Positions 1,439 through 26,472 of a DNA stretch of 64,000 nucleotides are shown here, one piece after another (position 1 is the first letter of the stretch; each line of letters opens with the position of its first letter). Source of the DNA: Microvirga lenta (GTDB lineage Bacteria; Pseudomonadota; Alphaproteobacteria; Rhizobiales; Beijerinckiaceae); contig NZ_JAJBBR010000008.1 of the NCBI RefSeq assembly GCF_020532555.1, forward strand, positions 248,001-312,000. The letters are read 5' to 3'. The notes under the pieces were generated by a model. That model did not search any database and was not told the DNA's origin. It saw only the letters and a list, made by a program, of their open reading frames with translations. Made by a program: the position numbers and the translations under genes.

Positions 1439-1648
1439 CTAGCTCAGGATCTGCTTCGTGGCCAGGATCCGGAACACCGTCGAAGCGATAAAGCTCGCGC
1501 CGGCAACGAGTTGCGCCGCGGCTTCCGCGAAGGCGTCCGAGTCCAGCTCCGAAGCGTCGAAGCCGAGGAGGCCGAGGACGAGCGCCGCGAGGCCGACCAG
1601 ATTGGCCCAGACGGTGCGGCTGGCGAGAATGGTCTTGGTGTCGATCAT
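1439..1648 (-). CDS. Small holin-like membrane protein at the end of the GTA cluster
   Basis: This 69-residue protein has one clear hydrophobic segment (about 14-30, ANLVGLAALVLGLLGF) and a second amphipathic segment (about 45-62). The opening TILASRTVWANL resembles small phage proteins encoded beside endolysins. Its ATG overlaps the TGA of the GH108 lysozyme (ATGA), so the two are translationally coupled. A holin or lysis-timing role is inferred from size, hydrophobicity and this pairing. No family signature proves it. Confidence 0.6.
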   Translation of the reverse strand: MIDTKTILASRTVWANLVGLAALVLGLLGFDASELDSDAFAEAAAQLVAGASFIASTVFRILATKQILS

Positions 1649-2190
1649 GAGGATGGTTCCCTTTCAGGGTGGGTGGAGGAAGGGGCGAGCCGGAGAGCCT
1701 CCCGCTCGACCGCGAGAACCCGAATGCGCCAGCCCCGCCCGAAGACGGGCCAGGCGGCGAGCCGGGAAAGGAAGGCAAGCCGCGCGCGGGTCAGGCGGCG
1801 GACGGCGTCCGCCGTGTCCGCCTCCCGCGCGGCCTGCAGGGTCAGCGGCCCGGCGACGCCGTCCGCCGCGACGCCGAGGACGTCCTGCAGCGTCCGCACG
1901 GCCCGCGCCGGACCGGAATTGACCGCGAAATCGAACAGGGCGAGATCGAGCCCGGGCGGCAGGTCGTCGGCCCGGACCACGTCCCAGTAGAGGCGGCGAT
2001 AGATCCCGCCCGCCTCCTCCCGGCTGAGCCCGCGCACGTCCTCCACCGAGACGGGGCGGCCCCGGGACCGGGCGAGGGTCGCGCGGGTGATGCCGAACTT
2101 GGTCGCTCCGCCCGGATCGGCCGGGTGGTGGACGAACCCGCCCTCGTGCCGCAGGACGCAGGCGAGGCAGGCCTCGAAGGTCGCCGCCAT
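1645..2190 (-). CDS. GH108-family lysozyme (endolysin)
   Basis: A protein of 181 residues with the N-terminal GH108 signature: FEACLACVLRHEGGF with the catalytic glutamate E16 in HEGG, then DPGGATKFGIT. The C-terminal part (about 85-130, FDFAVNSGPARAVRTLQ, then GVAGPLT) matches the peptidoglycan-binding half of the family. It is expected to cleave the glycan strand of peptidoglycan during particle release. The start is fixed by an ATGA overlap with the DUF2793 gene upstream, and its stop overlaps the holin-like gene. No signal peptide is visible, so export would need the holin. In Rhodobacter capsulatus the GTA lysis genes are encoded away from the structural cluster, whereas here they are attached to its end. 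Confidence 0.9.
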   Translation of the reverse strand: MAATFEACLACVLRHEGGFVHHPADPGGATKFGITRATLARSRGRPVSVEDVRGLSREEAGGIYRRLYWDVVRADDLPPGLDLALFDFAVNSGPARAVRTLQDVLGVAADGVAGPLTLQAAREADTADAVRRLTRARLAFLSRLAAWPVFGRGWRIRVLAVEREALRLAPSSTHPEREPSS

Positions 2191-3710
2191 CACGGTTCCG
2201 CCTGCAGGGCGATGAAGGCGGAGGCGCCGAGATGGAGCGCGCCGACCGCGCCCGGCGACCCGCTGAACGAGGTGCCCGCCTGCAGCCTCACGACAGCGGA
2301 GCCGGCCCCCGCGCGCGCCAGCGACAGGGCGAGCCCGCCCGACAGGCCCGCCCAGAGCCCGGCGGCATTGTCGAAGAAGGCGATCTGGTTGCCCGAAGGC
2401 GCCGCACCCGACCACGCGAAGCCGCTGGTCAGGAGGGCCGGAGCGGCCCGCATGGGCGTGGGCAGAGGACAGAACACGTCGATGAGATTGCCCGAGACCC
2501 GCTGGGCGAGAACCATGCCGCCGCCGCTCGCGATGCGCTGGTAGTAGCGGCGGCAGCGGGCCTCCGTGATCTCGATGGGCTCCGCGCTCCATGGCGTCGC
2601 GACCGCTCCGCGTTCGAGCCGGACGCGGGCGAAGGTGCAGGCCGATGCCGGATGAAGGCGGACGGTGACGTGCCCGGTCTCCGATGCGTCGAGCGTCACG
2701 GTGGCGGAGCGGCGGCCGCTTCCGGCCGGGATGGTCGCGGCCTTCGTGCCGACGACCACGGGGATCGGCGCCGAAGGGTTTTCGACCGAGAGGGTCAGGG
2801 TGCCGCCCGCATAGGAGGACGCGCCGGTGAGCGCCGCCGCCTGCGCTACGTCCACCACCTGCTCGACCGGCCCGGTGAGAGTGACGGTTCCGTCGGCCGT
2901 GCGTGCGATCGTGCAGCCCCCCGGCCCCGCCTTCCAGCGGTCGAAGCCGGAGGCGCCCGCCGCCAGGGCGCCGCCTGCGAAGGGGCGCTGGTTGACGAGG
3001 AAATGGCCGTTGACGAGGAGGTTCGGCGCGGTCTCCCCCGCATGGCCGCTGGGAAACGACACGAGCCCCGTTGCCGCATCGACGCGGAGCGCATCGTGCC
3101 ACGCGCTGCCGTCGGGCGAGACGCGGATGCGGAAGTCGTCGCCGCCGATCAGGCCCGTCTCGGCCCGTCCGCTGTAGCCGCTCTGATAGAGCTGGGACAG
3201 CACGCTGGCGGCGCCCTCCTTGTTGAGCACGAAGCGCAGATCCCCCGTGCCGCCCTCCCCCGCGCCGAGCGCCGTGAACAGCGCCGCGTTGAGCTTCGCG
3301 GCGAGGCGGTTGAGATCGTCCGCGCCCGTGCCGATACCGAGGCGCTCCACATGCGAGAGCTCCCGGGTGTAGCGGCCGAGATCGCGCCATTGCGCGCCGT
3401 CGAAGACGAGGATCGCGTCCTCCGCCTCCACATAGGCGCGCCAGCCGGGGCGCGGGACGAGGAAGCGCCACGAGCCGAGGTCGAACAGGGCGATCTCGCC
3501 GCCATGGCCGGCGAAGACGCCGGCGGCGTCGGAGCCGAGGAGATAGCGGTCCCCCTCCTGCGGGGAACCCGGCGCGGCAACGCGGTTCCTCTCCTTCACG
3601 GCGAGGTGGACGAGCGCGTCGAGGGAGGCCAGGGCCTCGTTGTGCGTGACGTGCTTCTGGGCCTGCGCCGCGGCGAGCAGCGGCAGGTCGAGATGGGGTG
3701 TGCTGGTCAT
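2190..3710 (-). CDS. DUF2793 tail-fibre/receptor-binding protein
   Basis: A protein of 506 residues. The N-terminal third carries the DUF2793 pattern: PHLDLPLLAAAQAQKHVTHNEAL, then EGDRYLLG, FAGHGGEIALFD and a WRFLVPRPGW block. The middle (about 225-375) reads as a beta-rich carbohydrate-binding or fibre domain (NLLVNGHFLVNQRPF, then GFDRWKAG). The C-terminus is a further beta-rich region. Proteins of this kind sit behind the GTA baseplate gene in alphaproteobacteria and probably bind the recipient surface. Its 5' end is 17 bp from g15 and its 3' end overlaps the lysozyme gene. Confidence 0.82.
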   Translation of the reverse strand: MTSTPHLDLPLLAAAQAQKHVTHNEALASLDALVHLAVKERNRVAAPGSPQEGDRYLLGSDAAGVFAGHGGEIALFDLGSWRFLVPRPGWRAYVEAEDAILVFDGAQWRDLGRYTRELSHVERLGIGTGADDLNRLAAKLNAALFTALGAGEGGTGDLRFVLNKEGAASVLSQLYQSGYSGRAETGLIGGDDFRIRVSPDGSAWHDALRVDAATGLVSFPSGHAGETAPNLLVNGHFLVNQRPFAGGALAAGASGFDRWKAGPGGCTIARTADGTVTLTGPVEQVVDVAQAAALTGASSYAGGTLTLSVENPSAPIPVVVGTKAATIPAGSGRRSATVTLDASETGHVTVRLHPASACTFARVRLERGAVATPWSAEPIEITEARCRRYYQRIASGGGMVLAQRVSGNLIDVFCPLPTPMRAAPALLTSGFAWSGAAPSGNQIAFFDNAAGLWAGLSGGLALSLARAGAGSAVVRLQAGTSFSGSPGAVGALHLGASAFIALQAEP

Positions 3711-3727
3711 GTGGTACCGACGGGAGG

Positions 3728-7605: not shown

Positions 7606-8028
7606 TTATCCGGGAAAGCGAAAGACATGGGCGAGATGGCGCCGCCACCAGGGCCGGAACGCCACCTCGGCGACGCAGGCCCCGTCATGGGCATGGATCA
7701 TGGTGGCGTCCGACGTGGCGATGGCGCAGTGCTTGGCGGGCAGGCCCGCGCGCCAGCGGAAGAGCAGCACGTCCCCCGGCGCGAGATCCGCGATTTCCAC
7801 CTCGACCAGGTGCCGCCGCGCCGCGGCGAGAAGCGTGTCGGCCCCCGCCTCCGCCCAGTCGGCGGCATAGGGCGGCGGCTTTTCGGGCTCGGCGCCCATG
7901 ACCTCCCTCCACACCCCGCGCAGAAGGCCGAGGCAGTCGCAGCCGACGCCCTTGAGCGAAGCCTGATGGCGATAGGGTGTGCCGAGCCAGGAGCGCGCCT
8001 CGGCGACGACTATGTCGGGTATGGGCAT
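7606..8028 (-). CDS. GTA g14 NlpC/P60-family peptidase
   Basis: A 140-residue protein of the NlpC/P60 cysteine peptidase fold, the GTA gp14 equivalent. The nucleophile is in GVGCDCLGLLRGVW (C32, with C30 beside it), the catalytic His in LPAKHCAI (H100), and H112 follows. ATG 8028 begins MPIPDIVVAEARSWLGTPYRHQ, the normal family N-terminus. In R. capsulatus this protein belongs to the baseplate and is thought to open recipient peptidoglycan. Unlike the usual tight packing, it is separated from g13 by 450 bp of repeats. Confidence 0.93.
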   Translation of the reverse strand: MPIPDIVVAEARSWLGTPYRHQASLKGVGCDCLGLLRGVWREVMGAEPEKPPPYAADWAEAGADTLLAAARRHLVEVEIADLAPGDVLLFRWRAGLPAKHCAIATSDATMIHAHDGACVAEVAFRPWWRRHLAHVFRFPG

Positions 8029-8039
8029 GGAAGATGCAG

Positions 8040-8220: not shown

Positions 8221-8342
8221 TGCTCTCCTCCCCCTTGTGGGGAGGAGGTGGAGGTGGGGGTGTGAGCGCCATCCTGGTTCCAGTCCTGCGCTCACACCCC
8301 CACCCTGGCCCTCCCCACAAGGGGGAGGGAATGAGGTCGCGC
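8221..8342. repeat. Palindromic repeat family A, copy 1
   Basis: Two perfect small hairpins face each other: CTCCTCCCC-cttgt-GGGGAGGAG and CCCTCCCC-acaag-GGGGAGGG. They are joined by GC-rich arms (GGTGGGGGTGTGAG and its complement) and a loop of about 24 nt beginning CATCCTGGTTCC. The unit ends in AATGAGGTCGCGC. The architecture is that of a REP pair (BIME-like). Other copies are at 12553, 16541, 20618, 42211 and 46585. Confidence 0.85.
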
Positions 8343-10294: not shown

Positions 10295-10543
10295 ATGAGC
10301 AACGCCCCCAACGACCTCGCCTCGGACTTTCCGGACAAGACCGACCGGATCCACCAGCTCAAGACGAGCAACAACCACTTCGCGCGGCTCTACGACGAGT
10401 ACAACGAGCTGAACCGCACCATCCATAGGGTCGAGACCCGGGTGGAGCCGACCACCGAGGACGTCGAGGAGGACCTCAAGCGCCGCCGCGTCAGGCTCAA
10501 GGACGAGCTGCTGGCGATGATCGAGAACGAGGAGAACGCCTAA
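10295..10543 (+). CDS. DUF465 (YdcH-like) protein inserted between g12 and g11
   Basis: An 82-residue protein, largely alpha-helical and charged. The DUF465 signature is clear: KTDRIHQLKTSNNHFARLYDEYNELNRTIHRVE, read in parts at residues 15-48. ATG 10295 is preceded by GGGAG. It is transcribed opposite to the flanking tail genes, so the presumed GTA transcript crosses it antisense. DUF465 proteins are widespread small cytoplasmic proteins without an agreed function, and I know of no established tail role. It is either an inserted host gene or a passenger of the cluster. Confidence 0.85.
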   Translation: MSNAPNDLASDFPDKTDRIHQLKTSNNHFARLYDEYNELNRTIHRVETRVEPTTEDVEEDLKRRRVRLKDELLAMIENEENA

Positions 10544-11637: not shown

Positions 11638-11639
11638 TG

Positions 11640-12718: not shown

Positions 12719-13129
12719 TCACAACGCCGCGAAGGTGAGCGCGCCTGCGGATTCGAAGGCCATCTCGAAGGTCACTTCGCCCGCATGGTCGCCGCGATAT
12801 TCGAGACTCGTGATCTGGAACGGGCCTTCGATGCGGCCGAAATCCGGAACGACGATCTGGTAGGCGAGAATGTCGCCGTCGAAGAAAACCTGGCGCATGC
12901 GCGCGTCGGAGGCTTCGTCCTTGAACACGCCGGAGCCGGTGATGCCCGCGCGGCGCACGCCGACCCCGGCGAGAAGCTCGCGCCAGCGTCCGGCGGATTC
13001 CGCGTTCGTCACGTCGACCGTTTCGGCGTTGAACGCGATCTGGCGCGTGCGCAGCCCCGCCACCGTGACGAAGCCGCCATCCGCATCGCCGATCTTGACG
13101 AGCAGGTCCTTGCCCTTCTGTGCAGGCAT
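12719..13129 (-). CDS. GTA g9 major tail (tube) protein
   Basis: A 136-residue protein of the TP901-1-type major tail protein family, the GTA tube subunit. It shows MPAQKGKDLLVKIGD, then TRQIAFNAETVDVTNAESAGRWRELLAGVGV and ITGSGVFKDEASDARMRQVFFDG, all typical of GTA gp9. The start is ATG 13129 after a purine-rich stretch, and the frame is intact. Both neighbours are separated from it by repeats (families A/B on the 3' side, family C on the 5' side). Confidence 0.93.
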   Translation of the reverse strand: MPAQKGKDLLVKIGDADGGFVTVAGLRTRQIAFNAETVDVTNAESAGRWRELLAGVGVRRAGITGSGVFKDEASDARMRQVFFDGDILAYQIVVPDFGRIEGPFQITSLEYRGDHAGEVTFEMAFESAGALTFAAL

Positions 13130-14729: not shown

Positions 14730-15476
14730 ATGAAACGGCTCACCACCCTCCTCCTCGCGTGCGGCCTGTCGGCGACGGCCGCGCAGGCGATCGTCGGCGG
14801 CCGCGAGGACAACGGTCCTCTCGCGCGGCAGAGCGTGATGGTCCTGAGTTCGAACGGCGGCGTGTGCAGCGCCGTGGTCGTGGCGCCGGACGCGGTGCTC
14901 ACCGCCGCCCATTGCGTGACCGGCGCGGCGGAACACCGGGTGCATTTCCGCGACGAGTCGGGAGAGCCGGTGCTGATCGTGCCCGCCGCGAAGGCGGTGC
15001 ATCCGGCCTACGACCCGAAGGCCATCGAGACCCGCCGGCGCTCCATCGACCTCGCGCTGCTGCGCATTCCCGAACCGCTGCCGGACCGATTCGAGACGGC
15101 GACCCTCGGCGCGTCATGGCCGGCGAAGAACGGCACCGTCGTGGTGGGCGGCTACGGCCTTGCCCGCCGCAACGACCCGAAGACCACGGGCACCTTCCGC
15201 ACCGCGTCCCTGACGGTCATCGAGCCCTACGGCCCAAGCCGGATTCTCCTGTGGTCGAAGGGCACGGGCGCGATGGGCGCGTGCCAGGGCGATTCAGGCG
15301 GGCCGATGGCCTCGGGAGATTCGGTGGTCGCGGTCACGAGCTGGTCCACCGCCGCCAAGGGAGAGAGCTGCGGAGACGTGACGCAAGGCATCCTGGTGGG
15401 GCCGCAGCGGCAATGGATCGATCAAACTCTCGCGAGCTGGCGGCGAAGCGCGCGGTGGAACGGCGCGGTGCCCTGA
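14730..15476 (+). CDS. Secreted trypsin-like serine protease 1 (S1 family), inside the GTA cluster
   Basis: A 248-residue S1 peptidase. The signal peptide (1-20) ends in ATAAQA and is followed directly by I21-V22-G23-G24. Signal peptidase cleavage alone would therefore create the IVGG N-terminus that activates chymotrypsin-fold proteases, with no propeptide. The catalytic triad is H61 (LTAAHC), D107 (SIDLALL) and S189 (CQGDSGGP). The start ATG has AGGGA upstream. It is divergent from g6 and followed by a second, diverged S1 protease. Roles in particle maturation, recipient envelope damage or unrelated secretion are all possible, and none is shown by the sequence. Confidence 0.92.
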   Translation: MKRLTTLLLACGLSATAAQAIVGGREDNGPLARQSVMVLSSNGGVCSAVVVAPDAVLTAAHCVTGAAEHRVHFRDESGEPVLIVPAAKAVHPAYDPKAIETRRRSIDLALLRIPEPLPDRFETATLGASWPAKNGTVVVGGYGLARRNDPKTTGTFRTASLTVIEPYGPSRILLWSKGTGAMGACQGDSGGPMASGDSVVAVTSWSTAAKGESCGDVTQGILVGPQRQWIDQTLASWRRSARWNGAVP

Positions 15477-15551: not shown

Positions 15552-16346
15552 ATGCGCATCCTGCCGTTCCTCATCGCCGCCTTCATGCTTTTCGCCGCTC
15601 CCGCGCAGGCCGTGCTGCTGGGCACCACGACCCGCGATCCGAACGGCCTGCGGCGCTCGGTGGTCTACATCGAGAACAGCGCGGGCGAGCTCTGCTCCGG
15701 CGCGGTGATCGCGCGGGACCTCGTGCTCACCGCCGCCCATTGCATGATGGACGTGGCGTCCTACCGGGTCGTCGCGGTGAACCGCGCCTTCCGTCCGCAG
15801 CGCTACGCGGTGGTGGCGATGGCGGTTCACCCGACCTTCGTGCACGGCACGACGCCGCGCACCCAACCCGGCGTGGACCTGGCGATCCTCAAACTCGGTC
15901 AGCCCCTCAGCCCCGACTACGCGCCGCTCGATCCGAGGCTCGCGGTGGACATCGACACGGGCAACCGGGTCACCATCGCGGGGTTCGGGCTTCTGTCCGA
16001 GCGGCAGCGGCGCACGGCGCGCATTCTGCGCCAGACGGATCTGGTCTCCCTCGGCCCGGTGGAGGTGGCGAACCGGGTGATCATCGTCGCCGACAGGACC
16101 CGGCTCGCCGAGACCACGGGCGCGGGCGCCTGCCGCGGCGATTCCGGAGGCCCCGTTCTGGCCGCGACCCGCGGCGGCTACCGCCTCCTCGGCATCGTCA
16201 GCTGGTCGAGCGGCGCCCTGCGCAGCCGCGACACCAGCGCCTGCGGCGGGCTGACGGCCGTGACGCCGATTTCCGAGCATCTGGGCTGGATCATGGAGGG
16301 CATCCGCTCCCTGGACGGAATCGGGCCCGCCTGGACGCGGCGCTGA
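15552..16346 (+). CDS. Secreted trypsin-like serine protease 2 (S1 family), inside the GTA cluster
   Basis: A 264-residue S1 peptidase. I chose ATG 15552 (MRILPFLIAAFMLFAAPAQA) because the upstream alternative is a TTG that would spoil the signal peptide. After cleavage the N-terminus is VLLGTTTRDPNG, not IVGG, so activation differs from its neighbour. The triad is H63 (LTAAHC), D109 (GVDLAIL) and S198 (CRGDSGGP). It shares with protease 1 the order signal peptide, triad and final CG disulfide region but is strongly diverged, so the pair is an old duplication or two acquisitions. It ends 447 bp before the capsid gene, in a repeat-filled gap. Confidence 0.91.
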   Translation: MRILPFLIAAFMLFAAPAQAVLLGTTTRDPNGLRRSVVYIENSAGELCSGAVIARDLVLTAAHCMMDVASYRVVAVNRAFRPQRYAVVAMAVHPTFVHGTTPRTQPGVDLAILKLGQPLSPDYAPLDPRLAVDIDTGNRVTIAGFGLLSERQRRTARILRQTDLVSLGPVEVANRVIIVADRTRLAETTGAGACRGDSGGPVLAATRGGYRLLGIVSWSSGALRSRDTSACGGLTAVTPISEHLGWIMEGIRSLDGIGPAWTRR

Positions 16347-16793: not shown

Positions 16794-18032
16794 TCAGCTC
16801 GCGAACTTCAGGAGCTTGATCGCCGCGAAGTCCTGCACGCCGCCGCCCACGCGCTTGGTGGTGTAGAACAGCACGTAGGGCTTGGCGGAGTAAGGATCGC
16901 GCAGCACGCGCATCCCGGCCCGGTCCACCACCAGATAGCCGCGCTTGAAGTCCCCGAAGGCGACCGCGCAGGCATCCGCCGCGATGTCAGGCATGTCCTC
17001 GGCCTCCACCACGGGAAAGCCCATCAGGGTCGCGGCCTGTCCGGCGCTCGCGGGCGGCGCCCAGAGATACTGGCCATTATCGTCCTTGAACCGGCGAATC
17101 GCGCTCTGCGTCTTGCGGTTCATCACGAAGGCGGCGTTCTGCCGGTAGCCGGCCTTCAGGGCGTAGATCAGCTCCACCAGTACGTCGGACGGGTTGGTGG
17201 CCGGAAAGCCCGCGCCGCCGGTCTGCACCGTGCCGAGGCGGCCCCATTCCCAGATCTCGTCCTCCACCGTGTCGGCGGCCAGAAAACCCTTCGGCTTGTT
17301 CACGCCGTCGCCGTTGACGAAGGCGGCGCCCTCCTGTTCGGCGAAGGCGGATTCGACCTCCTCCGCGATCCAGCGGTCGATATCGACCACCGCGTCGTCG
17401 AGAAGGGTCTGGGTCGCGGCCGGCATGGCATAGAGCTCCATGGCCGGGAAGCTCATCTCCGAAAGGGTCGGGCCCGCCGTCTGCGGCCGGGCCGCCGTCT
17501 CGCCGACCCAGCCGGTGGCCGGTCCCGAGGCCGAGAAGGCGCGCTTGTACTGCCCGCCGGAAATCACCCGCACGGACGAGATGGCACGGATCGGCGACAC
17601 CGCGGACAGGCGCCGCAGCACCTCGCGCTCCACGACATCGGGCACGAGATAGCCGCCGTCCGGTCCGGAGCCCGCCGACAGGGCCTTCTCCTCGAGCCGC
17701 TTGAGCCCCGAGGCCTCGCCGCTGCGGATATAGGCGTGGAACGCGGTCTTGTGCTCGGCCTGCGCCGGATCGCGCGCTCCCTCCCCGCCGTCGCCCAGGG
17801 GCGGGCGCGAGCGGTCGAGGGCCAGGCGGTCCAGGCGGCGCTTGGCGTCGTCGAGGGCGGCGTCGATGCGGGCGAGCTTCTCGTCCGTCACCACGTCGCC
17901 GGTCAGGCGCGTCTCGATCTCGCCGAGGCGGGTGTCGTTGGCGTCCTTGAAGGCCTCGAAGGCCCGGGCGAAATCCTCGAAGGCCTGGGCCACGTCGGCG
18001 GATTGCGCCTTGGTTTCAACAATGGGGATCAT
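16794..18032 (-). CDS. GTA g5 HK97-fold major capsid protein
   Basis: A 412-residue HK97-type major capsid protein (GTA gp5). The N-terminal 95 residues are a charged coiled-coil scaffolding delta domain (DTRLGEIETRLTGDVVTDEKLARIDAAL), removed by the g4 protease in related particles. The fold starts near SAGSGPDGGYLVPDVVEREVLRRL and continues through GWVGETAARPQT, MELYAMPAATQTLLDDA, EEVESAFAEQEGAAFVNGDG and a C-terminal GDFKRGYLVVDRAGMRVLRDP. I chose ATG 18032 over a TTG three codons upstream. The frame is complete. Confidence 0.95.
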   Translation of the reverse strand: MIPIVETKAQSADVAQAFEDFARAFEAFKDANDTRLGEIETRLTGDVVTDEKLARIDAALDDAKRRLDRLALDRSRPPLGDGGEGARDPAQAEHKTAFHAYIRSGEASGLKRLEEKALSAGSGPDGGYLVPDVVEREVLRRLSAVSPIRAISSVRVISGGQYKRAFSASGPATGWVGETAARPQTAGPTLSEMSFPAMELYAMPAATQTLLDDAVVDIDRWIAEEVESAFAEQEGAAFVNGDGVNKPKGFLAADTVEDEIWEWGRLGTVQTGGAGFPATNPSDVLVELIYALKAGYRQNAAFVMNRKTQSAIRRFKDDNGQYLWAPPASAGQAATLMGFPVVEAEDMPDIAADACAVAFGDFKRGYLVVDRAGMRVLRDPYSAKPYVLFYTTKRVGGGVQDFAAIKLLKFAS

Positions 18033-18062: not shown

Positions 18063-18086
18063 AAAAGGCCCGCCGGATGGCGGGCC
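18063..18086 (-). terminator. Intrinsic terminator just upstream of the capsid gene
   Basis: On the minus strand GGCCCGCC-ATCC-GGCGGGCC is followed by TTTT. It lies between the lipoprotein stop (18116) and the capsid ATG (18032). It would end transcripts from the g4 side unless read through or overridden. Confidence 0.65.
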
Positions 18087-18115
18087 CTGCGGTTTTCCCT
18101 CGGTGAGGGAAAGGG

Positions 18116-18435: not shown

Positions 18436-18972
18436 TCAGGGGAACAATCGGGCCGCGGCCCGGCGGATCGCGCCCGCCAGATCGGGCCTGCCGCCCTTCA
18501 CGCTCGCCACGCGGGCGCCGGGCAGCATGGGGAAGGTCACGACGGAGATTTCCCACAGGTCGAGCTTTTCGAGCCGGCGCAGGCCGGTGGGCCGCTCGGC
18601 CCGGGCGCGCTCGACGCGAAAGCCGATGGACAGCCCGTCGACCGCGCCGTCGCGCATCAACGCATGGATCTCCCGCGCCCGCTCGACCGCGAGGTTGAGC
18701 CTGCCGCGCACGAAGAGGCCGCGCCGGTCCTCCTCGATGGCGAGCCAGCGTCCGATGGGCTCGGACGGATCGTGCTGCCAGAGCAGGCGCACGGCGGCGG
18801 CGCCGCGCTTGGCGAGGCTGTCGGCGAAGGCGCCGGGCATCACCACGTCCTTGCCGAGATCGGCGATGCCGAACAGGCTGGCATAGCCCTCGAACACCCC
18901 GTCCGCCTCGACGGTGCTCAGCGGCTCGGCCAGGAGCTTCACCTCGCGGGTGAAAGGGGTGCGGGCCTTCAT
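18436..18972 (-). CDS. GTA g4 HK97-family prohead protease
   Basis: A 178-residue U35-type prohead protease. The catalytic His is H67 (LLWQHDPSEPIG) and the serine S115 (DGLSIGFRV), followed by LEKLDLWEISVVTFPMLP. The start ATG 18972 overlaps the stop of the small gene upstream (ATGA). It trims the capsid delta domain during head assembly. The core frame is intact, and the Arg-rich C-terminus (RRAAARLFP) is short. Confidence 0.93.
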   Translation of the reverse strand: MKARTPFTREVKLLAEPLSTVEADGVFEGYASLFGIADLGKDVVMPGAFADSLAKRGAAAVRLLWQHDPSEPIGRWLAIEEDRRGLFVRGRLNLAVERAREIHALMRDGAVDGLSIGFRVERARAERPTGLRRLEKLDLWEISVVTFPMLPGARVASVKGGRPDLAGAIRRAAARLFP

Positions 18973-19142
18973 CGCGCACCGCCGCGGGCGGCCTTCAGCG
19001 GGCGGGCGTCGAGCTTTTCGAGCTGGCGCACGAAATCGCGGAACACGAGCGAGGCGCGGCTCTGCGTCTCGCGCGCCGCCTTGGGCTTGCGGGCGGGGCG
19101 GGTCGAGGCGCGGCAAGGGGCGTTGGAAGCGGCGCGGGTCAT
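18969..19142 (-). CDS. Small basic GTA-linked protein (g3.5-like, second of two)
   Basis: A 57-residue, Arg/Lys/Ala-rich protein (MTRAASNAPCRASTRPARK, then VFRDFVRQLEKLDARP). Its start overlaps the stop of the preceding small gene, and its stop overlaps the g4 start (both ATGA). The region between portal and prohead protease carries the small g3.5 gene in R. capsulatus. Positional equivalence is all I can claim, and the function is unknown. Confidence 0.6.
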   Translation of the reverse strand: MTRAASNAPCRASTRPARKPKAARETQSRASLVFRDFVRQLEKLDARPLKAARGGAR

Positions 19143-19339
19143 GGGGTGTCTCCCGAGTGGCGGCGGTTGAAGAGGGCGAGCTCGCGCACGAAGGCGTCGA
19201 AGCGGCGGTTGGCCGCGAACAGATCGCGCAGGGTCATGGCGAGCAGCGCGGAGGCCCCGCTCGCCCAAACGAACAGGGCGAGATGGGCAAGGTCGCCGCG
19301 CCGGATCACGGCTTCGGCGACCTGATCGAAAATGTTCAT
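19139..19339 (-). CDS. Small membrane protein (g3.5-like, first of two)
   Basis: A 66-residue protein with one membrane segment (about 20-37, LALFVWASGASALLAMTL) and a positively charged C-terminus (RDLFAANRRFDAFVRELALFNRR). ATG 19339 begins MNIFDQVAEAVIRRGDLAH. It is translationally coupled to the next small gene. Its position matches GTA g3.5 between the portal and protease genes. Upstream it faces the divergent DUF4174 gene. Confidence 0.65.
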   Translation of the reverse strand: MNIFDQVAEAVIRRGDLAHLALFVWASGASALLAMTLRDLFAANRRFDAFVRELALFNRRHSGDTP

Positions 19340-19501
19340 GATTTGTTCTAGCCTGGATATGGGGGAATACGGAGAGGTGAACGAGGCGCGGTGCAACCCG
19401 CGCCCGTCCGGCGGCTTACCTCCTGGTCCGGGCGGCAGGTTCGGGTCGCCCCTGTGGCCGATCCGAAAGCCGCCGTCGTCATTGCCGATGGAGCCTCAGC
19501 C

Positions 19502-19864
19502 ATGCCGTCGTCCTGGCACGACAAGCGCGTCCTTCTCGTCTTCGCCGATGCAGCCGGCCCGCGGGTCGACGAGCAGACCGGCGCCTTCCTGTCCGACCGC
19601 GATGCGCTCGCGGAGCGCGACATGGTCGTCCTCGCGGTGGTCGGCGACCGGGTCGATCCCGTTTTCGGAGACGCCCCCTCCGGCGCCGACGCGGCGGCCC
19701 TGCGGGCCCGTTACGGCGTGGAGGCCGGAACGCCTTTCACGGCCCTGCTGATCGGCAAGAACGGCGGCGTGAAGCGGCGCGAGCACAAACCCGTGACCCC
19801 GGCCGAGATCTTCGGGCTGATCGACACCATGCCGATGCGAAGGGCGGAGATGCGGGAGCAATAG
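19502..19864 (+). CDS. DUF4174 protein, opposite strand inside the GTA cluster
   Basis: A 120-residue protein with the thioredoxin-like DUF4174 pattern: SWHDKRVLLVFADAAGPRVDEQ, RDALAERDMVVLAVVGD, GVEAGTPFTALLIGKNGGVKRRE and a final IFGLIDTMPMRRAEMRE. ATG 19502 has GGAG 8 nt upstream. DUF4174 proteins are usually chromosomal, not phage. It is divergent from the g3.5-like genes and convergent with the PD-(D/E)XK-like gene (13 bp apart), so it interrupts the head operon. Function unknown. Confidence 0.85.
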   Translation: MPSSWHDKRVLLVFADAAGPRVDEQTGAFLSDRDALAERDMVVLAVVGDRVDPVFGDAPSGADAAALRARYGVEAGTPFTALLIGKNGGVKRREHKPVTPAEIFGLIDTMPMRRAEMREQ

Positions 19865-20617: not shown

Positions 20618-20736
20618 CGCGACGTCCTTCCCTCCCCCTTGTGGGGAGGGCCAGGGTGGGGGTGTGAGCGATAGCCTATGAAGGTGTGGCGCCCACACCC
20701 CCACCTCCACCTCCTCCCCACAAGGGGGAGGAGAGC
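20618..20736. repeat. Palindromic repeat family A, copy 4
   Basis: CCCTCCCC-cttgt-GGGGAGGG, the loop GATAGCCTATGAAGGTGTG, and CTCCTCCCC-acaag-GGGGAGGAG. The orientation is the same as copy 2, but the loop is inverted relative to its arms. Confidence 0.87.
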
Positions 20737-21045: not shown

Positions 21046-22197
21046 TCACCGCCGCCCGTATCCCACCGCCTCGCGTTTCTCGTCGTCCGTGAGAAACGCC
21101 GCCGCCGAGACGCGCCGCCACAGGCTTTCGCGCTCCTCGGCCAGCGCCTCGATGGCGTCGAGGTCGGGCATGAGCGTCAGCGTCTCGCCAAAGGCAGGCG
21201 AGAGCCAGTGCGCGAGGGCTTCGGCCGTGCGGCGCACCAGCGGGATGACCGTCTGGCGGTAGAAGGCGCGGTTGGCCTCCGCATAGTTCGCATGGGTGTT
21301 GTCGCCGGAAAGTCCGAGCAGCAGCGGCGGCACGCCGAAGGCGAGCGCGATCTCCCGCGCGGCGGCCGCCTTGGCCTCGACGAAGTCCATGTCCTTCGGC
21401 GACAGCGACAGAGGCTTCCAATCGAGGCCGCCTTCCAGCAGCAGCGGGCGGCCCGCATTGGCGGAGCCCTGGTATTGCGTGTCGAGCTCCCCTTTGAGCC
21501 GGTCGAACTGCGCATCCGTGAGTGACGCGCCGCCGACCACCAGCGCGCCGGAGGGCCGCGCCGCGTTGTCGAGGAGCGCCTTGTTCCAGGCGCCCGCCGC
21601 GTTGTGGATGTCGAGGGCGGTGGCGGCCGCCTCCATGGGCGACAGGCCGTAATGATCGTCCGCCGGATGGAACAGGGTGAGGTGCAGGACCGGCGGCACT
21701 GTCTCCCCGGCCCTCGGCGCGAAGCGGATCGTCTCGCCGCCCACGGCGTAGTTGTAGGCGGCGGGCCAGCCGTCCGCGCCCGGCACCACGCGCATCCGGT
21801 CGGGACGCAGCGCGTGGAGTTCGCGCGGCATACCGTCCACCTGCACGGCTTCCACATAGGCATTGCCGGACACCATGAGATGCCCGTAGACGCTCTCCAG
21901 GAAACGCTGCCCCTCCTCCCGCATGTTGGGCCGGGCGAGAAGCGCCAGGAGCGGATGCTCGACGAGTTCCCCTGCCCCGCGCCTGAGCACCAGCGGCAGC
22001 GACGCCGCCGCCTCGGCCACCAGCCGCACGGCGCGATGCACGACGGCGTTCTTCTGGAATCCCTCGCGCGAGAGCGCCGTGTAATCCCGCGGCGTCCAGA
22101 CGGGATGTCCCGCCACGTAGAGCGCGATGGCCCCTTGCGTGCGCGAGGCCTTGGCTTCGGGCGGCGCCTGAAGCCAGCGGGTCAGCAGATCGATCAT
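21046..22197 (-). CDS. GTA g3 portal protein (HK97 family)
   Basis: A 383-residue portal protein. ATG 22197 (MIDLLTRWLQAPPEAKASR) gives the family N-terminus. Characteristic blocks are WTPRDYTALSREGFQKNAVVHRAVRLVA, VYGHLMVSGNAYVE, LRPDRMRVVPG, FHPADDHYGLSPMEAA, WNKALLDNAARPSGAL and FGVPPLLLGLSGDNTHANYAEANRAFYRQTV. It forms the dodecameric channel through which the terminase packs DNA. The frame is complete. A DUF2267 gene and an ABM-fold gene separate it from the terminase. Confidence 0.95.
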   Translation of the reverse strand: MIDLLTRWLQAPPEAKASRTQGAIALYVAGHPVWTPRDYTALSREGFQKNAVVHRAVRLVAEAAASLPLVLRRGAGELVEHPLLALLARPNMREEGQRFLESVYGHLMVSGNAYVEAVQVDGMPRELHALRPDRMRVVPGADGWPAAYNYAVGGETIRFAPRAGETVPPVLHLTLFHPADDHYGLSPMEAAATALDIHNAAGAWNKALLDNAARPSGALVVGGASLTDAQFDRLKGELDTQYQGSANAGRPLLLEGGLDWKPLSLSPKDMDFVEAKAAAAREIALAFGVPPLLLGLSGDNTHANYAEANRAFYRQTVIPLVRRTAEALAHWLSPAFGETLTLMPDLDAIEALAEERESLWRRVSAAAFLTDDEKREAVGYGRR

Positions 22198-22291
22198 GAA
22201 AAAGGCTCCTGCCCCGGCGGGGCGAAGACGGGTGGATGCGGCGACGGTCCGGTTCAGCCGCCATGAGGCCCGTAAAGAGGCCCGTATCGGA

Positions 22292-22711
22292 TCAGGCGCT
22301 CCAGAATTCCCGCGCCGCCGCCGGCAATTCGGCGAGGACCCGGTCCAGCCCGGCCCCGTCCGCGTGGCGCCGCAGGGCCGCCGCCACGTCCCGGATCGAG
22401 CTGTCGGGCGCAAAGTTGTGGTGGCGGCGGACGGCCTGCACCTCCCGGGTCATTGCGGCGCGATCCGCGAAGGGAAGCCTCGGCTCGTCCACGTCCCAAT
22501 CGGTCACGAACAGCGCCCGCAGGACGGGCGGCAGCGCGTTGGCGAAGCGGATCGCCTCCTTCACCGCGAGGCGGCGGCGGAAGACCTGGAGAACGGCCTG
22601 CACCATCGTGTAGGTCTGGTTGCGGGTCGCAAGGCCCGCGAGATCCCGCGCATCGGCCAGGAATCTCTCGAAATCCTCCGAGGCGTGCTGGAACTCCATC
22701 GGTATCGTCAT
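22292..22711 (-). CDS. DUF2267 protein between terminase and portal
   Basis: A 139-residue helical protein with the DUF2267 duplication pattern: FERFLADARDLAGLATRNQTYTMVQAVLQVFRRRL with FANALPPVLRALFVTDWD, then TREVQAVRRHHN and a C-terminal half repeat. DUF2267 proteins are cytoplasmic proteins of unknown function found in soil proteobacteria and actinobacteria. It is on the GTA strand and would be co-transcribed with the portal gene, but GTA clusters do not normally contain it. Confidence 0.85.
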   Translation of the reverse strand: MTIPMEFQHASEDFERFLADARDLAGLATRNQTYTMVQAVLQVFRRRLAVKEAIRFANALPPVLRALFVTDWDVDEPRLPFADRAAMTREVQAVRRHHNFAPDSSIRDVAAALRRHADGAGLDRVLAELPAAAREFWSA

Positions 22712-23314: not shown

Positions 23315-24643
23315 CTACAGCACCCGCACCCGCGGCTCGCGCCGTTCGCGCAGCATCAGCTCCGTGAGCGCCCAGACCAGCGCGTCCATGCGGTCGGGGG
23401 AGCGGCCGTTGCTCAGGCCCCCGGGGCCGAAATCGCACAGCTCGTCCTCCAGCTCCGGCAGCGCGCCCACGTGGCGCACCCGGTTCTGCGCGTAGAGCAC
23501 GGAGACCGGCTCCGCGCGCAGGTATTTTCCCCGCGTGGCGCGCACGCTCGCCACCGGCACGGCGGGATCGACCTCGCGGATCACGCCGGTCGCCATCTCG
23601 CCGCCCTGGTTGGTTTCGACCACGAGGGCGTCGGCCTGCAGGCGGCGATACAGCGCCACAGCCTTCGTGGCCCATTCCGGCGGCCTGAGGCCGGAGGCGG
23701 TGGCGTCCTCCAGCACATAGGCCGTGCCGCCCTCGTCCACGCCCGCCGCGACGATGCCGCAGGCATCCGCCCGCTTCGACGACGAGGCGGGCGGATCGAC
23801 TGCGACGACGATGCGCATGAGCGGCGGCGGCGAGTCCACCCGGTTGAGTTCGAGCACGTCCCGGGTCCAGAGCGCGTCGGGCCGGTCCTCCACGATCTCG
23901 CCGTCGAGCTCCTGCCGCCCGAGCCGCGTGCCGCCGTAGCGGCCGATGACCGTTTCCAGAAAGGCGGGTGCGAGATTGTCCGCATTGTCCGCCGTCCTCA
24001 CCCGCGACACCGCCACGTGAGGATCGGCGAGGAAGCGCTTGAGCAGCGGGATCGGGCGCGGCGTCGTCGTGACCATCTGGCGCGGATGCTGGCCGAGGCG
24101 CAGGCCGAATTGCAGCATGTCCCACGTCTCCTCGGCGTGCTTCCACTTGGCGAGTTCGTCCGCCCAGGCGGCTTCGAATTGCGGGCCGCGCAGGGAGTCG
24201 GGGTCCTCCGCCGAGAAGACCTGCGCCACCGCGCCGTTGCGCCATTCCAGCTTGCGCAGGGAGGGCGACCAGGCCGGGCGCTCGTGGCGGTCATGGACCT
24301 CCAGGATTCCGGCGGGTCCCTCCACCATCACGTTGCGCGCATCGGAAAAGGTTTCGCCGATGAGCGCGATGCGCCCGACGGCGTTCGGGGAAAAATCCGG
24401 CAGGCCGAGCGCGAGGCCGCGCACCCATTCGGAGCCAGCGCGGGTCTTGCCCGCGCCGCGCCCGCCGAGCATGAGCCAGGTGGTCCAGGGATCGTGATGC
24501 CGCGCGAGGCCCGGCATTCGCTGTTCGGGACGGCAGCGCAGCGGCCAGTGCCGGAGCGCGACGTCGAACTCCGCCTCAGACCAGGAGGCCGTCGCGGCCT
24601 CGAGCCTCCTCCTCCGCGATAACCCGCTCAAGATGGCGAGCAA
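23315..24643 (-). CDS. GTA g2 terminase large subunit
   Basis: An approximately 442-residue packaging ATPase/nuclease. Walker A is WLMLGGRGAGKTRAG, the Walker B region WADELAKWKHAEETWDMLQFGLRLG, and the nuclease domain shows VVAVDPPASS, ALVVETNQGG and a final DRMDALVWALTEL. The start is uncertain. TTG 24643 and TTG 24631 fit the family's short leader before WPLRCRPEQ. ATG 24700 has AGGAAGG upstream but overlaps g1 more deeply. It drives headful packaging of host DNA in GTA. The frame is complete. Confidence 0.93.
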   Translation of the reverse strand: MLAILSGLSRRRRLEAATASWSEAEFDVALRHWPLRCRPEQRMPGLARHHDPWTTWLMLGGRGAGKTRAGSEWVRGLALGLPDFSPNAVGRIALIGETFSDARNVMVEGPAGILEVHDRHERPAWSPSLRKLEWRNGAVAQVFSAEDPDSLRGPQFEAAWADELAKWKHAEETWDMLQFGLRLGQHPRQMVTTTPRPIPLLKRFLADPHVAVSRVRTADNADNLAPAFLETVIGRYGGTRLGRQELDGEIVEDRPDALWTRDVLELNRVDSPPPLMRIVVAVDPPASSSKRADACGIVAAGVDEGGTAYVLEDATASGLRPPEWATKAVALYRRLQADALVVETNQGGEMATGVIREVDPAVPVASVRATRGKYLRAEPVSVLYAQNRVRHVGALPELEDELCDFGPGGLSNGRSPDRMDALVWALTELMLRERREPRVRVL

Positions 24644-25091
24644 GTTCGTCGCGGAGTTCGTGGATGCTGCGGGGCGGTTTTTCGGTGTGCCCGTGTCCAT
24701 CGAGCGTGCTGCCTTCCTGTTCCAGCAGGGATTGCGCGGCCGTGAGCGTCTTCGCATAGGAGGCGAGCGTGCGCGCGGTCCTGTCGTGATCGTCGGCGCC
24801 GTCCGCGCGCTGCTCCCTCACCAGCGCGTCGATGCGCGTGCGGGTGACCTGCGCGAGCGACAGGGCCGCCTCGCGCAGGGTGTTCTGCGGCGACGCGGGA
24901 ACGCTCTGCGGCGGCTCCGCATTCAGGGCCTCGGAGCGCGGCGGCCAGCCCCAGCTCTTGCGCAGGCGGCGGAAGCTCCACACGCTCACGCCGAGGAACG
25001 ACGCGATGGCGCCGAGGGAGACTTTCGGGTGACGGGCATAGTAGTCGTAGGCCCGCTGCCTGACGTCGTCGGTGATGGCGGATGTCTTCAT
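24576..25091 (-). CDS. GTA g1 terminase small subunit
   Basis: A 171-residue protein with an N-terminal helix-turn-helix (YARHPKVSLGAIASFLGVSVWSFRRLRKSWGW) and a helical oligomerisation region (TRTRIDALVREQ, then ASYAKTLTAAQSLLEQEG), as in rhizobial GTA gp1. The C-terminus (ELARHLERVIAEEEARGRD) overlaps the g2 start. In R. capsulatus gp1 binds DNA without sequence preference and regulates the large subunit. ATG 25091 lies 7 bp after the LamG-like gene, so the two form one operon. Confidence 0.88.
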   Translation of the reverse strand: MKTSAITDDVRQRAYDYYARHPKVSLGAIASFLGVSVWSFRRLRKSWGWPPRSEALNAEPPQSVPASPQNTLREAALSLAQVTRTRIDALVREQRADGADDHDRTARTLASYAKTLTAAQSLLEQEGSTLDGHGHTEKPPRSIHELRDELARHLERVIAEEEARGRDGLLV

Positions 25092-25098
25092 GTCTGTC

Positions 25099-25836
25099 TC
25101 ATGCTTGTCCGAGAGTGACGCCGGCTTCGGCCGCGACCTGCGCGGTGCGCTGCGCCACGAGGGCGGGCGCGAGCGCGCCGGTCCAGACCTCGAAGGCCGC
25201 CAGCACCATGTTGTTGCCGTCGCCGGTGCCCGTGTCGCTGTAGATCGAGTTGATCATCATGCCGGCCGAGCCGCCCGGATCCCAGACCGGCGCATCGGCC
25301 GCGGCCACCACCTCGCCGTCCATGTGGACCTTGAGGTGGTTGGACGGCAGCGCCGGATCGAACGTGACGCAGAAGACGCGCCAGACGCCCGGCACCACCG
25401 TTCCGCCGACCGCGCGGCTGCCGTTGCCGGCGGTGCCCGCATTGAGGCTCGCGCCGCCCGGCTGTCCGCGCCAGAGCATGTAGGGCAGCGGCGAGCTCCT
25501 GGCGGTGAAATACACCCCCTGCCCGTCGAGGCTGGCGTTCTTCACGAGCATCAGCACCGTGAACGGACCTGCGGGAAGAGTGGCGGCGGTTTCGAGGATC
25601 TGCGCGGCGGTGAATTGCAGCGCCCCGCCCTCGCCCAGCGCGACGAGTGCCGGCTCCTCGCCGGGTTTCGGGCGCCATTCCGTCGTGTCCGTGCCGGTGC
25701 TCGGCACCACGAGGGGCGCGGTCTGCGCATGGGCGAAATCGAGGCGGATCATCGGGTCCGGCATCGCGACGGGGGAACGGGTTCGCCTCCGGCGCCGCTG
25801 CAGCCCGTAGCCGTAGCCGAAGCTGTAGGCGGCCAT
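25099..25836 (-). CDS. LamG/concanavalin-like jelly-roll protein upstream of the terminase
   Basis: A 245-residue protein: a Gly/Tyr/Arg N-terminus (MAAYSFGYGYGLQRRRRR) followed by a LamG-type beta-sandwich (ALQFTAAQILETA, FTVLMLVKNASLDGQGVYF, GVWRVFCVTFDPALPSNHLKVHMDGE, GNNMVLAAFEVWTGAL). Such domains bind glycans. There is no signal peptide. A start overlap of one base (TGATG) ties it to the small gene upstream, and it is 7 bp from g1. It may be a fibre or head decoration for attachment. That is inference from fold and context. Confidence 0.68.
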   Translation of the reverse strand: MAAYSFGYGYGLQRRRRRTRSPVAMPDPMIRLDFAHAQTAPLVVPSTGTDTTEWRPKPGEEPALVALGEGGALQFTAAQILETAATLPAGPFTVLMLVKNASLDGQGVYFTARSSPLPYMLWRGQPGGASLNAGTAGNGSRAVGGTVVPGVWRVFCVTFDPALPSNHLKVHMDGEVVAAADAPVWDPGGSAGMMINSIYSDTGTGDGNNMVLAAFEVWTGALAPALVAQRTAQVAAEAGVTLGQA

Positions 25837-26180
25837 CAGGCGATCTCGACGAGCGAGAACAGGGTGCCCGCCTCGCAGAAGACCGGCACCTCCTCGCCGG
25901 GCTCGACGAGCTTGCCGTTCGTCTCCGACGCGACCGGATCCTCGCCCCAGGCGACGGCGACGGGATTGTCCGACCCGCCCAGGCAGCGCACCAGCGCATA
26001 GCCCGAGGCGCGCGAGCCGAAATCCGGCGCCGCCGGTCGCGCCGCGCCCGCCGTCGGCGCCGTGGTGACGGCGAGGATCACGGCGGAGCCGTGCAGGCGC
26101 TGGATGATGTTGTGAGCCGACCCGTTCAGGGAGCGGCCCTCGCCGAGGGTGACCCATTCGATGCGGGCGCGTGCGGCCAT
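25836..26180 (-). CDS. Hypothetical protein, first gene of the GTA operon
   Basis: A 114-residue protein starting at ATG 26180 (MAARARIEWVTLGEGRSLNG) with a beta-rich composition (HGSAVILAVTTAPTAG, ASGYALVRCLGGSDNPVAVAW, EEVPVFCEAGTLFSLVEIA). I do not recognise the family. The pattern resembles small accessory proteins encoded beside tail-fibre genes. It heads the minus-strand series and follows a promoter (26363-26391) and a terminator (26261-26294). Confidence 0.6.
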   Translation of the reverse strand: MAARARIEWVTLGEGRSLNGSAHNIIQRLHGSAVILAVTTAPTAGAARPAAPDFGSRASGYALVRCLGGSDNPVAVAWGEDPVASETNGKLVEPGEEVPVFCEAGTLFSLVEIA

Positions 26181-26260
26181 GGGCGATCTCCGAATATGAC
26201 TGAAACGAATGCCGGGGCCCGAGGCGAAGGTCGCGCCTGCGAGGGCCCCGGAAGGGGAAT

Positions 26261-26294
26261 AAAAAAACCGCCCAGGCCGGAGGCTTGGGCGGTT
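26261..26294 (-). terminator. Intrinsic terminator (possible attenuator) upstream of the GTA operon
   Basis: On the minus strand AACCGCCCAAGCC-tcc-GGCCTGGGCGGTT is followed directly by seven T residues in all. No minus-strand gene precedes it, only the promoter at 26363-26391. It therefore stands in the leader between promoter and first gene and could hold GTA transcription off. Confidence 0.85.
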
Positions 26295-26354
26295 GCAGAC
26301 TGACAGGAGAGCAAAGAGGCCGGGGGGCACGGGTCTCATTCACACTTCGTCAGC

Positions 26355-26391
26355 GTTCTTGTTTTGTACTCTAAGAGCGTCGCGCTGTCAA
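26355..26391 (-). promoter_or_regulatory. Sigma70-type promoter overlapped by an SOS-like box, pointing into the GTA cluster
   Basis: The minus strand reads TTGACA (26386-26391), a 17-nt spacer, then TACAAA (26363-26368). Overlapping the -10 and the expected start site, GTAC-N7-GAAC (26355-26369) differs by one base from the alphaproteobacterial LexA direct repeat GAAC-N7-GAAC. The promoter is seen directly. LexA control is inference. Confidence 0.65.
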
Positions 26392-26472
26392 GGTGGATTT
26401 TCTGAATAGGCAAGTGGACACAATGTTGCACATCGTGCCATTCTATCCAGAATAAAACCCACAATTCGGTCA

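What the first reader, a model, noticed from the sequence alone, without database searches (positions are those of the whole stretch)
1439..26394. Near-complete GTA cluster broken by opposite-strand genes, terminators and repeats
Genes equivalent to GTA g1 to g15 are present in the canonical order on one strand, which in known GTAs is one long transcription unit. Here that unit is crossed by at least four opposite-strand genes (DUF465, two secreted proteases, DUF4174), two intrinsic terminators (18063, 26261) and palindromic repeats in most gaps. Either the GTA is being dismantled in an ordered way while most frames stay intact, or its transcription uses antitermination and several promoters. 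Most genes remain undamaged, which argues for recent change or for selection on parts of the particle.
Basis: partly seen in the sequence, partly recalled or inferred. Interest (0 to 1): 0.85.

Follow-up and report, generated by a model that had tools for sequence, protein, structure and literature searches.

The report
Gene transfer agent carrying host genes
A bacterium keeps a virus-derived DNA-delivery particle whose long gene cluster has ordinary host genes lodged in it on the opposite strand; relatives that lost the particle kept those host genes, and the cluster seems to be switched on by one promoter whose transcripts must run through two built-in stop signals.

Summary
The window's nearest named relatives are Microvirga. 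RcGTA-type genes g1-g15 lie in order on the minus strand, with DUF465, two trypsin-like proteases (prtA, prtB) and DUF4174 on the plus strand; both terminators exist. The decay reading fails: DUF465 and the proteases hold the same places across the genus (34/36 and 34/34 loci), and a protease sits there in 65/70 named loci (51/56 outside Microvirga). GTA genes show purifying selection. Three relatives that lost the GTA, apart on a tree, kept DUF465, prtA and prtB, so these are independently retained host genes. The one damaged core gene seen here is g8 (frame split, cause unknown). One promoter (TTGACA-17-TACAAA, dyad between the hexamers) lies upstream of g1 and occurs in 47/48 genomes. A leader terminator follows it (33/38 loci), and one internal terminator precedes capsid gene g5 (34/34). 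This resembles GafZ antitermination in Caulobacter; a DUF6456 (GafZ/GafA-C-like) gene near sufE lies 20 kb away. I conclude: a GTA kept by selection, read by antitermination from one promoter through antiparallel host genes. Antitermination itself is inferred. New variant of a known kind.

The parts
26361..26392 (-). GTA promoter: TTGACA, 17 nt, TACAAA, with dyad AGCGnnnCGCT between the hexamers; about 20 further conserved bases downstream
   Evidence: a match in 47/48 genus genomes, G013 having a second, weak one; perfect dyad in 35/38 loci; same arrangement in loci of other genera
26262..26293 (-). leader terminator between promoter and first gene
   Evidence: 33/38 loci, shuffles 0.4%; 4 of 13 predicted pairs in the 32-leader alignment show two-sided changes
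25836..26180 (-). extra ORF between leader terminator and lectin-like gene (start uncertain; frame open to 26339)
   Evidence: no PHROG match for 25836-26339
25099..25836 (-). lectin-like (laminin-G) gene before g1
   Evidence: Pfam PF13385 on ORF 25099-26343, E 7e-7; start
24576..25091 (-). g1 (small terminase position)
   Evidence: position and conservation in genus; no PHROG match
23315..24703 (-). g2 large terminase
   Evidence: Pfam PF03237, PF17289
22856..23170 (-). passenger ABM-like gene, patchy in genus
   Evidence: Pfam E 7e-4, below cut-off
22292..22711 (-). DUF2267 passenger, no tblastn match in the other genus loci mapped
21046..22200 (-). g3 portal
   Evidence: PF04860 E 2e-87
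19391..19864 (+). DUF4174 passenger, seen only here and in nearest relative G046
19139..19339 (-). g3.5, small conserved gene; kept in GTA-less G009 and G037
   Evidence: 44/48 genomes
18436..18975 (-). g4 prohead protease
   Evidence: PF04586
18116..18331 (-). gzl: small glycine-rich putative lipoprotein, kept in GTA-less G009 and G037
   Evidence: no Pfam match
18065..18088 (-). terminator after gzl, 32 nt before the g5 start codon
   Evidence: 34/34 genus loci; none of 17 other internal gaps tested has one on the GTA strand
16794..18032 (-). g5 major capsid
   Evidence: PF05065 E 2e-90
15552..16346 (+). prtB, trypsin-like protease passenger with signal-peptide-like start
   Evidence: PF00089; His63 and Ser198 in 79/79 aligned rows, some of them prtA copies
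14730..15476 (+). prtA, trypsin-like protease passenger; IVGG follows the signal-peptide-like start
   Evidence: PF00089; His61 and Ser189 in 79/79 rows; match in 47/48 genomes
14149..14709 (-). g6 connector
   Evidence: PF05135
13730..14065 (-). g7 head completion
   Evidence: PF05521
13324..13733 (-). g8 tail completion, frame split near 13611
12719..13129 (-). g9 tail tube
   Evidence: PF06199
11989..12327 (-). g10
   Evidence: PF11836
11762..11995 (-). g10.1 tail chaperone
   Evidence: PF09550
10665..11435 (-). g11 tape measure (conserved part 10665-11264)
   Evidence: PHROG tape measure families
10295..10543 (+). DUF465 passenger
   Evidence: PF04325
9570..10208 (-). g12
   Evidence: PF09343
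8479..9369 (-). g13 baseplate hub
   Evidence: PF09931, 6tba/6teh
7606..8031 (-). g14 NlpC/P60
   Evidence: PF00877
3728..7648 (-). g15 with GTA TIM barrel
   Evidence: PF13547, PF13550, PF23666
2190..3710 (-). DUF2793 tail-fibre-like gene
   Evidence: PF10983, PHROG tail fibre hits
46729..47694 (-). DUF6456 protein, candidate GafZ / GafA C-half, near sufE (46023-46484 +)
   Evidence: PF20057 E 3e-45, SufE E 6e-46; DUF6456 in 46/48 genomes

Best explanation
This is a chromosomally fixed RcGTA-type gene transfer agent cluster that selection still maintains, with old host genes lodged inside it. Shown: gene content and order; an antiparallel DUF465-prtA-prtB set that is conserved and survives GTA loss; a promoter that occurs once in the genome, with a dyad between its hexamers; a terminator in the leader; one conserved terminator before the capsid gene. 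Inferred: the DUF6456 protein loads on RNA polymerase at the promoter dyad and lets it pass both terminators, so one long minus-strand transcript covers g1-g15 and runs antisense through the plus-strand host genes. When uninduced, transcription would stop within about 100 nt. The host genes have their own function, unrelated to the particle as far as retention shows, and sit there as old passengers.
For: Passengers: a prtA match in 47/48 genus genomes, a strong GTA_TIM match in 41/48. G007, G009 and G037 have no strong TIM match genome-wide and no intact core GTA gene in 28 kb around the site, yet keep DUF465+prtA+prtB; G009 and G037 also keep g3.5 and gzl. These three are apart on a prtA+prtB tree. 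Selection: GTA genes dN/dS 0.04-0.40 vs nearest relative, g5 0.08, g9 0.04. Promoter: in 47/48 genomes; the genome without it, G007, also lacks DUF6456, g3.5 and the GTA. Leader terminator 33/38 vs 0.4% of shuffles. Terminator before g5 34/34, 0 in the 17 other internal gaps tested; the window's g5 ATG is 32 nt after the hairpin, too close for a promoter wholly between. In Caulobacter the GafZ element is a palindrome between -35 and -10, and GafZ bypasses a terminator and has one target (PMC11150451: abstract, sections 9 and 12, passages). Hyphomicrobiales gafA homologues are DUF6456-type genes with sufE downstream (PMC9638019, passages).
Against: No RNA data exist here. g8 is split in this assembly, so this strain may not make particles. 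No GafY was found: PF08299 gave only a DnaA-sized frame, although a divergent GafY could be missed. The Caulobacter promoter differs (poor -35, terminator after the first gene). Promoter, leader terminator and DUF6456 persist in GTA-less G009 and G037, so they may serve g3.5/gzl or something else. G026 has the promoter but no DUF6456 match (92% complete, 780 contigs). A stricter scan found a GTA-strand hairpin within 1.5 kb of g1 in only 17 of 31 loci, two of them other hairpins, and missed the window's own. In other genera only 2 of 23 promoter hits had a leader terminator by my scan. Of 47 prtA matches, three contain a stop (G002, G024, G029) and one is split between frames (G004), so the proteases are not intact everywhere.
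Confidence: 0.66

Rival explanations
1. The cluster is divided into several transcription units (g1-g4, g5, g6-g11, g12-g15) with own promoters, the antiparallel genes marking the borders; no read-through is needed.
For: prtA and g6 starts face each other across a median of 24 bp (19-674), and DUF465 and g12 across a median of 82 bp with little variation (69-97), as divergent promoters would.
Against: No second copy of the promoter in this genome; no sigma-70-like site in the cluster (weak test); the terminator-to-g5 distance leaves no room for a separate g5 promoter in the window. The short divergent gaps may just reflect packing.
Confidence: 0.2
2. This copy is being dismantled; most frames stay open only because loss is recent.
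For: g8 frame split; repeats and inserted genes in gaps; the GTA is lost or broken in at least 6 of 48 genus genomes. Further relatives show a stop inside the TIM match (G006, G039), g3 interrupted (L018) or a promoter far from g15, as by insertions (G003, G034).
Against: dN/dS mostly below the flanking median (g8 by its second part only, g15 by residues 1-890); no inner stop in the 15 other core ORFs read; DUF465 and the proteases are at least genus-old.
Confidence: 0.12
3. The embedded proteases are part of the GTA life cycle, for example lysis or release, as trypsin-like LypA and LypC are in Caulobacter.
For: Same site in at least 10 genera; active-site residues invariant; trypsin-like peptidase activity of LypA and LypC is needed for GTA release in Caulobacter (PMC13236601, passages).
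Against: Both proteases are found in all six GTA-less or GTA-broken relatives with a mapped site (the G024 prtA match has one stop); opposite strand to the GTA; signal-peptide-like starts, whereas LypA and LypC are described as multidomain proteins of another layout.
Confidence: 0.12

Closest known systems
RcGTA of Rhodobacter capsulatus (head-tail cluster g1-g15)
   Same: Gene set, order and strand; g13 matches the solved RcGTA protein.
   Different: Antiparallel host genes inside, extra small genes such as gzl, about 25 kb against about 14 kb (PMC9836097 passage).
CcGTA of Caulobacter crescentus with GafYZ control (PMC11150451: abstract, sections 9 and 12, passages)
   Same: Palindrome between -35 and -10, terminator inside the cluster, regulator of the DUF6456 family (the family model also rings in Caulobacter), one target promoter.
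   Different: Near-consensus -35 here; the first terminator lies before the first gene, a second before the capsid gene; no GafY detected.
Lambda PR'-tR'-Q late control (recalled, not tested)
   Same: Promoter, binding site at the promoter and terminator in the leader before the late operon.
   Different: No Q family protein or Q pause was tested.
Noncontiguous operon / excludon arrangements (recalled)
   Same: Gene on the opposite strand within a co-transcribed unit.
   Different: No transcripts were measured.

Membership tests
RcGTA-like gene transfer agent | Most of g1-g15 present in canonical order on one strand | tested here: met
RcGTA-like gene transfer agent | Host chromosomal surroundings without integrase, repressor or replication genes | tested here: inconclusive
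   Five nearby ORFs scanned: response regulator, PCMT-type methyltransferase, endo/exonuclease-phosphatase family, HWE kinase, and a 69-aa ORF with no match over its cut-off; none is a phage gene of that kind. The other flanking ORFs were not scanned.
RcGTA-like gene transfer agent | Purifying selection on the cluster | tested here: met
   dN/dS 0.04-0.40 against G046
RcGTA-like gene transfer agent | Vertical inheritance | not tested
   Presence across the genus fits, but GTA and species trees were not compared
RcGTA-like gene transfer agent | Particles packaging host DNA and gene transfer | not testable with these tools
   needs culture; g8 is split in this assembly
GafZ-type antitermination control | GafZ/GafA-C family regulator gene | tested here: met
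   DUF6456 near sufE
GafZ-type antitermination control | Palindrome between -35 and -10 of the cluster promoter, single target in genome | tested here: met
   (sequence only; binding not shown)
GafZ-type antitermination control | Terminator downstream of the promoter that must be bypassed | tested here: met
   the need for bypass is inferred
GafZ-type antitermination control | GafY partner | tested here: inconclusive
   PF08299 found only a DnaA-sized frame in the genome
GafZ-type antitermination control | Regulator travels with RNA polymerase | not testable with these tools
   needs ChIP-seq

The most novel reading that the evidence does not exclude
Induction of the GTA makes one antiterminated 25-kb transcript that runs antisense through DUF465, prtA and prtB, silencing these secreted proteases as particles are made (an exclusion switch within one cluster), and this antiparallel arrangement has been kept by selection in at least ten Rhizobiales genera. 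The promoter-leader module, with a structured leader RNA before the terminator, is a GTA switch used widely in the order.
Probability: 0.22. Interest if true: 0.8.

Novelty: new variant of a known kind. Interest (0 to 1): 0.6.

Why it matters
It turns an apparent ruin into a natural experiment: three separate GTA losses show which genes in the cluster are GTA and which are host. It also gives a concrete promoter and terminator module, essentially one copy per genome, by which GTA expression in Rhizobiales can be tested, and would extend antitermination control beyond Caulobacter.

Tried and rejected
Stock promoter and terminator scans found nothing useful; custom scans replaced them, with thresholds that I chose after seeing the two hairpins. 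Rfam gave no match in the window; no tRNA. Search for a GafY by PF08299 found only a DnaA-sized frame. An RNA model for the leader was not built because the alignment outside the terminator is uncertain; 32 of the 33 leaders with a terminator went into that alignment (L027, longer, was left out). A link between proteases and LypABC was considered and put down as a rival, since the proteases outlive the GTA. The repeats were considered as regulators and rejected: they are a genome-wide family. Their density in the cluster (7 of 90 half-sites in 25 kb) was noted, not tested. dN/dS controls include ORFs with ratios above 1 that look like wrong frames (3 of 26), kept in the quoted median. The lectin query was in a frame with stops; its tblastn matches are unreliable and not used. 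In one search a row lacking one protease may hold the other one's copy, so 79 of 79 is not 79 independent genes. G013 has a second promoter match at 3 mismatches, taken as chance. The tree used FastTree on 44 rows (42 of the genus); support values were not examined. Protease and DUF465 profiles were built from the genus only, so distant copies may be missed. Order-level contingency of proteases and GTA loss outside the genus was not tested (searches failed). No call names the window's own strain.
Full report
What is there. The window lies in a 4.5-Mb genome. Forty-seven further genomes held are in its genus, and the closest named loci are Microvirga. Pfam confirms g2, g4-g10.1 and g12-g15 on the minus strand in RcGTA order, a portal search g3, PHROGs the tape measure g11; g1 and g3.5 are assigned by position and conservation. 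g13 matches the RcGTA protein in 6tba/6teh. Plus-strand genes are DUF465, two trypsin-like proteases and DUF4174.

Is it recent? I fetched the cluster from 38 same-genus genomes (three of these stretches were cut short by contig ends) and mapped the window's proteins on them. DUF465 lies plus-strand between g12 and g11 in 34 of 36 loci with both, and the proteases between g6 and g5 in 34 of 34. Of 80 named loci fetched, 70 contain both g6 and g5 in order, and 65 of these carry one or two proteases between them on the opposite strand: Microvirga (14 of 14), Methylobacterium (25 of 25), Methylorubrum, Bosea, Chelatococcus, Pseudochelatococcus, Enterovirga, Salinarimonas, Phreatobacter, Rhodoblastus, Pseudolabrys, Pseudorhodoplanes and unnamed relatives. 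The five without are Hansschlegelia, Methylopila, Fulvimarina, Parvibaculum and one unnamed isolate. DUF465 is patchier (18 of 77). Those 80 were chosen by a GTA gene (g9) and are the best 80 of 530 candidates, so they say nothing about GTA-less genomes and lean to close relatives. Of the 12 other-family loci in the order sample with g6 and g5, only one has a protease there. DUF4174 is young: only the window and its nearest relative G046 showed it.

Is it decaying? Against G046 the core genes have dN/dS 0.04-0.40 (g1 highest, g9 lowest; g15 compared over residues 1-890, g8 over its second part); 26 flanking ORFs have median 0.275, three of them with ratios above 1 that look like wrong frames. 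The one lesion seen is g8: its first part reads in one frame and the rest in another, with the change near 13611; six relatives printed have it whole. Assembly error or true lesion cannot be told here. The other 15 core ORFs read have no inner stop. Upstream of g11 lies a degraded copy of its 5' end (repeat at 11679-11733 against 11219-11273).

What survives when the GTA is lost. Of 48 genus genomes, 41 have a strong GTA_TIM match (two of these, G006 and G039, with a stop inside); 7 do not. One of the 7 is a fragmentary assembly (G026) and one has a contig end at the site (G045). In G007, G009 and G037 the region beside the same response regulator holds DUF465, prtA and prtB and no intact core GTA gene; G037 still has scraps of g10, g6 and g5. 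G009 and G037 also keep g3.5 and the small lipoprotein gene gzl. G011, G024 and G027 are partly broken, again with both proteases, the prtA match of G024 containing a stop. On a prtA+prtB tree the three complete losses are apart: G007 near the base, G037 among G035/G030/G016, G009 beside G042 (support values not examined). A prtA match is in 47 of 48 genomes; in G002, G024 and G029 it contains a stop and in G004 it is split between frames. The host genes are therefore kept for their own sake in most species. I could not check genome-wide for core genes other than g15 in the three.

The proteases. His61/Ser189 (prtA) and His63/Ser198 (prtB) are invariant in 79 aligned rows each (some rows hold the other protease's copy). 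prtA has a signal-peptide-like start directly followed by IVGG, the mature N-terminus of trypsin-like enzymes; residue 21 aligns to residue 1 of mature factor Xa and trypsin chains. Secretion and activation are inference.

The terminators. The hairpin at 18088-18065 follows gzl and ends 32 nt before the g5 ATG. A strict scan finds one in the g4-g5 gap of 31 of 34 genus loci, in one of them far from g5; a scan allowing one G-U pair finds it in 34 of 34, and in none of the 17 other internal gaps tested (30-34 loci each) on the GTA strand. The hairpin at 26293-26262 lies between the promoter and the first gene. A scan allowing one mismatch finds counterparts within 220 nt of the promoter in 33 of 38 loci, against 0.4% of shuffles; the stricter scan had a hit within 1.5 kb of g1 in 17 of 31, two of them different hairpins, and missed the window's. 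In an alignment of 32 leaders 4 of 13 predicted pairs show two-sided changes. The leader upstream of it also folds in most single sequences, but its structure varies.

The promoter. A block of about 50 bases upstream of g1, with TTGACA, 17 nt, TACAAA and the dyad AGCGnnnCGCT between them, was found in 31 of 32 genus loci that contain g1, in the stretch adjoining the 32nd (G046), and in the window. Genome-wide a match occurs in 47 of 48 genomes, once each except for one weak extra match in G013; in the window's genome once. It is missing only in G007, which also lacks DUF6456, g3.5 and the GTA. A looser expression, made after seeing the motif, finds the same arrangement in 23 of 81 further loci scanned, among them Methylobacterium, Bosea, Hansschlegelia and Methylopila, besides two hits (L054, L058) that look like chance; some of the 81 end before the place would be reached. 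In the five order-level loci that I worked out by hand (L047, L048, L049, L052, L059) it lies about 490-660 nt before g2. Only two of the 23 had a leader terminator by my scan (L059, L108).

How it probably works. In Caulobacter GafZ binds a palindrome between -35 and -10, joins RNA polymerase and bypasses a terminator after the first gene (PMC11150451: abstract, sections 9 and 12 and passages read). Hyphomicrobiales gafA homologues are DUF6456-type genes with sufE downstream (PMC9638019, passages). This window has such a gene 20 kb from the promoter. The parsimonious model is one promoter, default stop in the leader, and antitermination through the leader and gzl terminators, with transcription running antisense through the host genes. 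The binding, the read-through and the antisense effect are inferred.

In print? Searches for GTA with Microvirga (two papers listed, one mention of each term), with trypsin-like/DUF465 (six), with serine protease/Hyphomicrobiales (20 of 41 listed), with Methylobacterium (ten), with Rhizobiales and RcGTA-like (20 of 26 listed) and with antitermination terms showed no description of embedded antiparallel proteases or of this promoter in the listings. I read passages of PMC13236601, PMC9836097, PMC6821227, PMC11409702, PMC9632790, PMC9638019, PMC9765227 and PMC3338782, and none whole; the library lacks most subscription papers. Methylobacterium nodulans prophages with RcGTA genes are described in PMC11409702 (passages) as distinct from ordinary RcGTA-like clusters.

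Verdict. The surprise is the old, antiparallel host genes that outlive the GTA, and the single-copy promoter-terminator module.

Noticed in passing
window 8227-8328, 12567-12667, 16616-16634, 20631-20731: REPIN-like paired inverted repeats (half-sites often 82-83 bp apart), 90 half-sites genome-wide, 7 of them in the GTA gaps.
   Followed up: partly
G000:C11:98903-99883 (L002): A second phage portal gene in the genome, probably a prophage.
   Followed up: no
window 1439-1648: 69-aa minus-strand ORF downstream of the DUF2793 gene with a hydrophobic stretch, possibly holin-like; weak PHROG match of unknown function; kept in G011 and G027.
   Followed up: no
window 11350-11727: Degraded copy of the g11 5' end and low-GC sequence between g10.1 and g11, a gap of very variable length in the genus (82-1765 bp).
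   Followed up: partly
L187:2787-2818 and L193:2400-2431: GTA-less G009 and G037 still keep the GTA promoter and leader terminator, perhaps now serving g3.5 and gzl.
   Followed up: partly
window 19878-20450: Minus-strand ORF (190 aa) between g3.5 and g3 without Pfam match, no tblastn match in the other genus loci mapped.
   Followed up: no
G003 (g15 near C267:197000, promoter near C267:119900) and G034 (C2:212700 and 242100): In two relatives the GTA promoter lies much farther from g15 than elsewhere, as if DNA had been inserted in the cluster.
   Followed up: no
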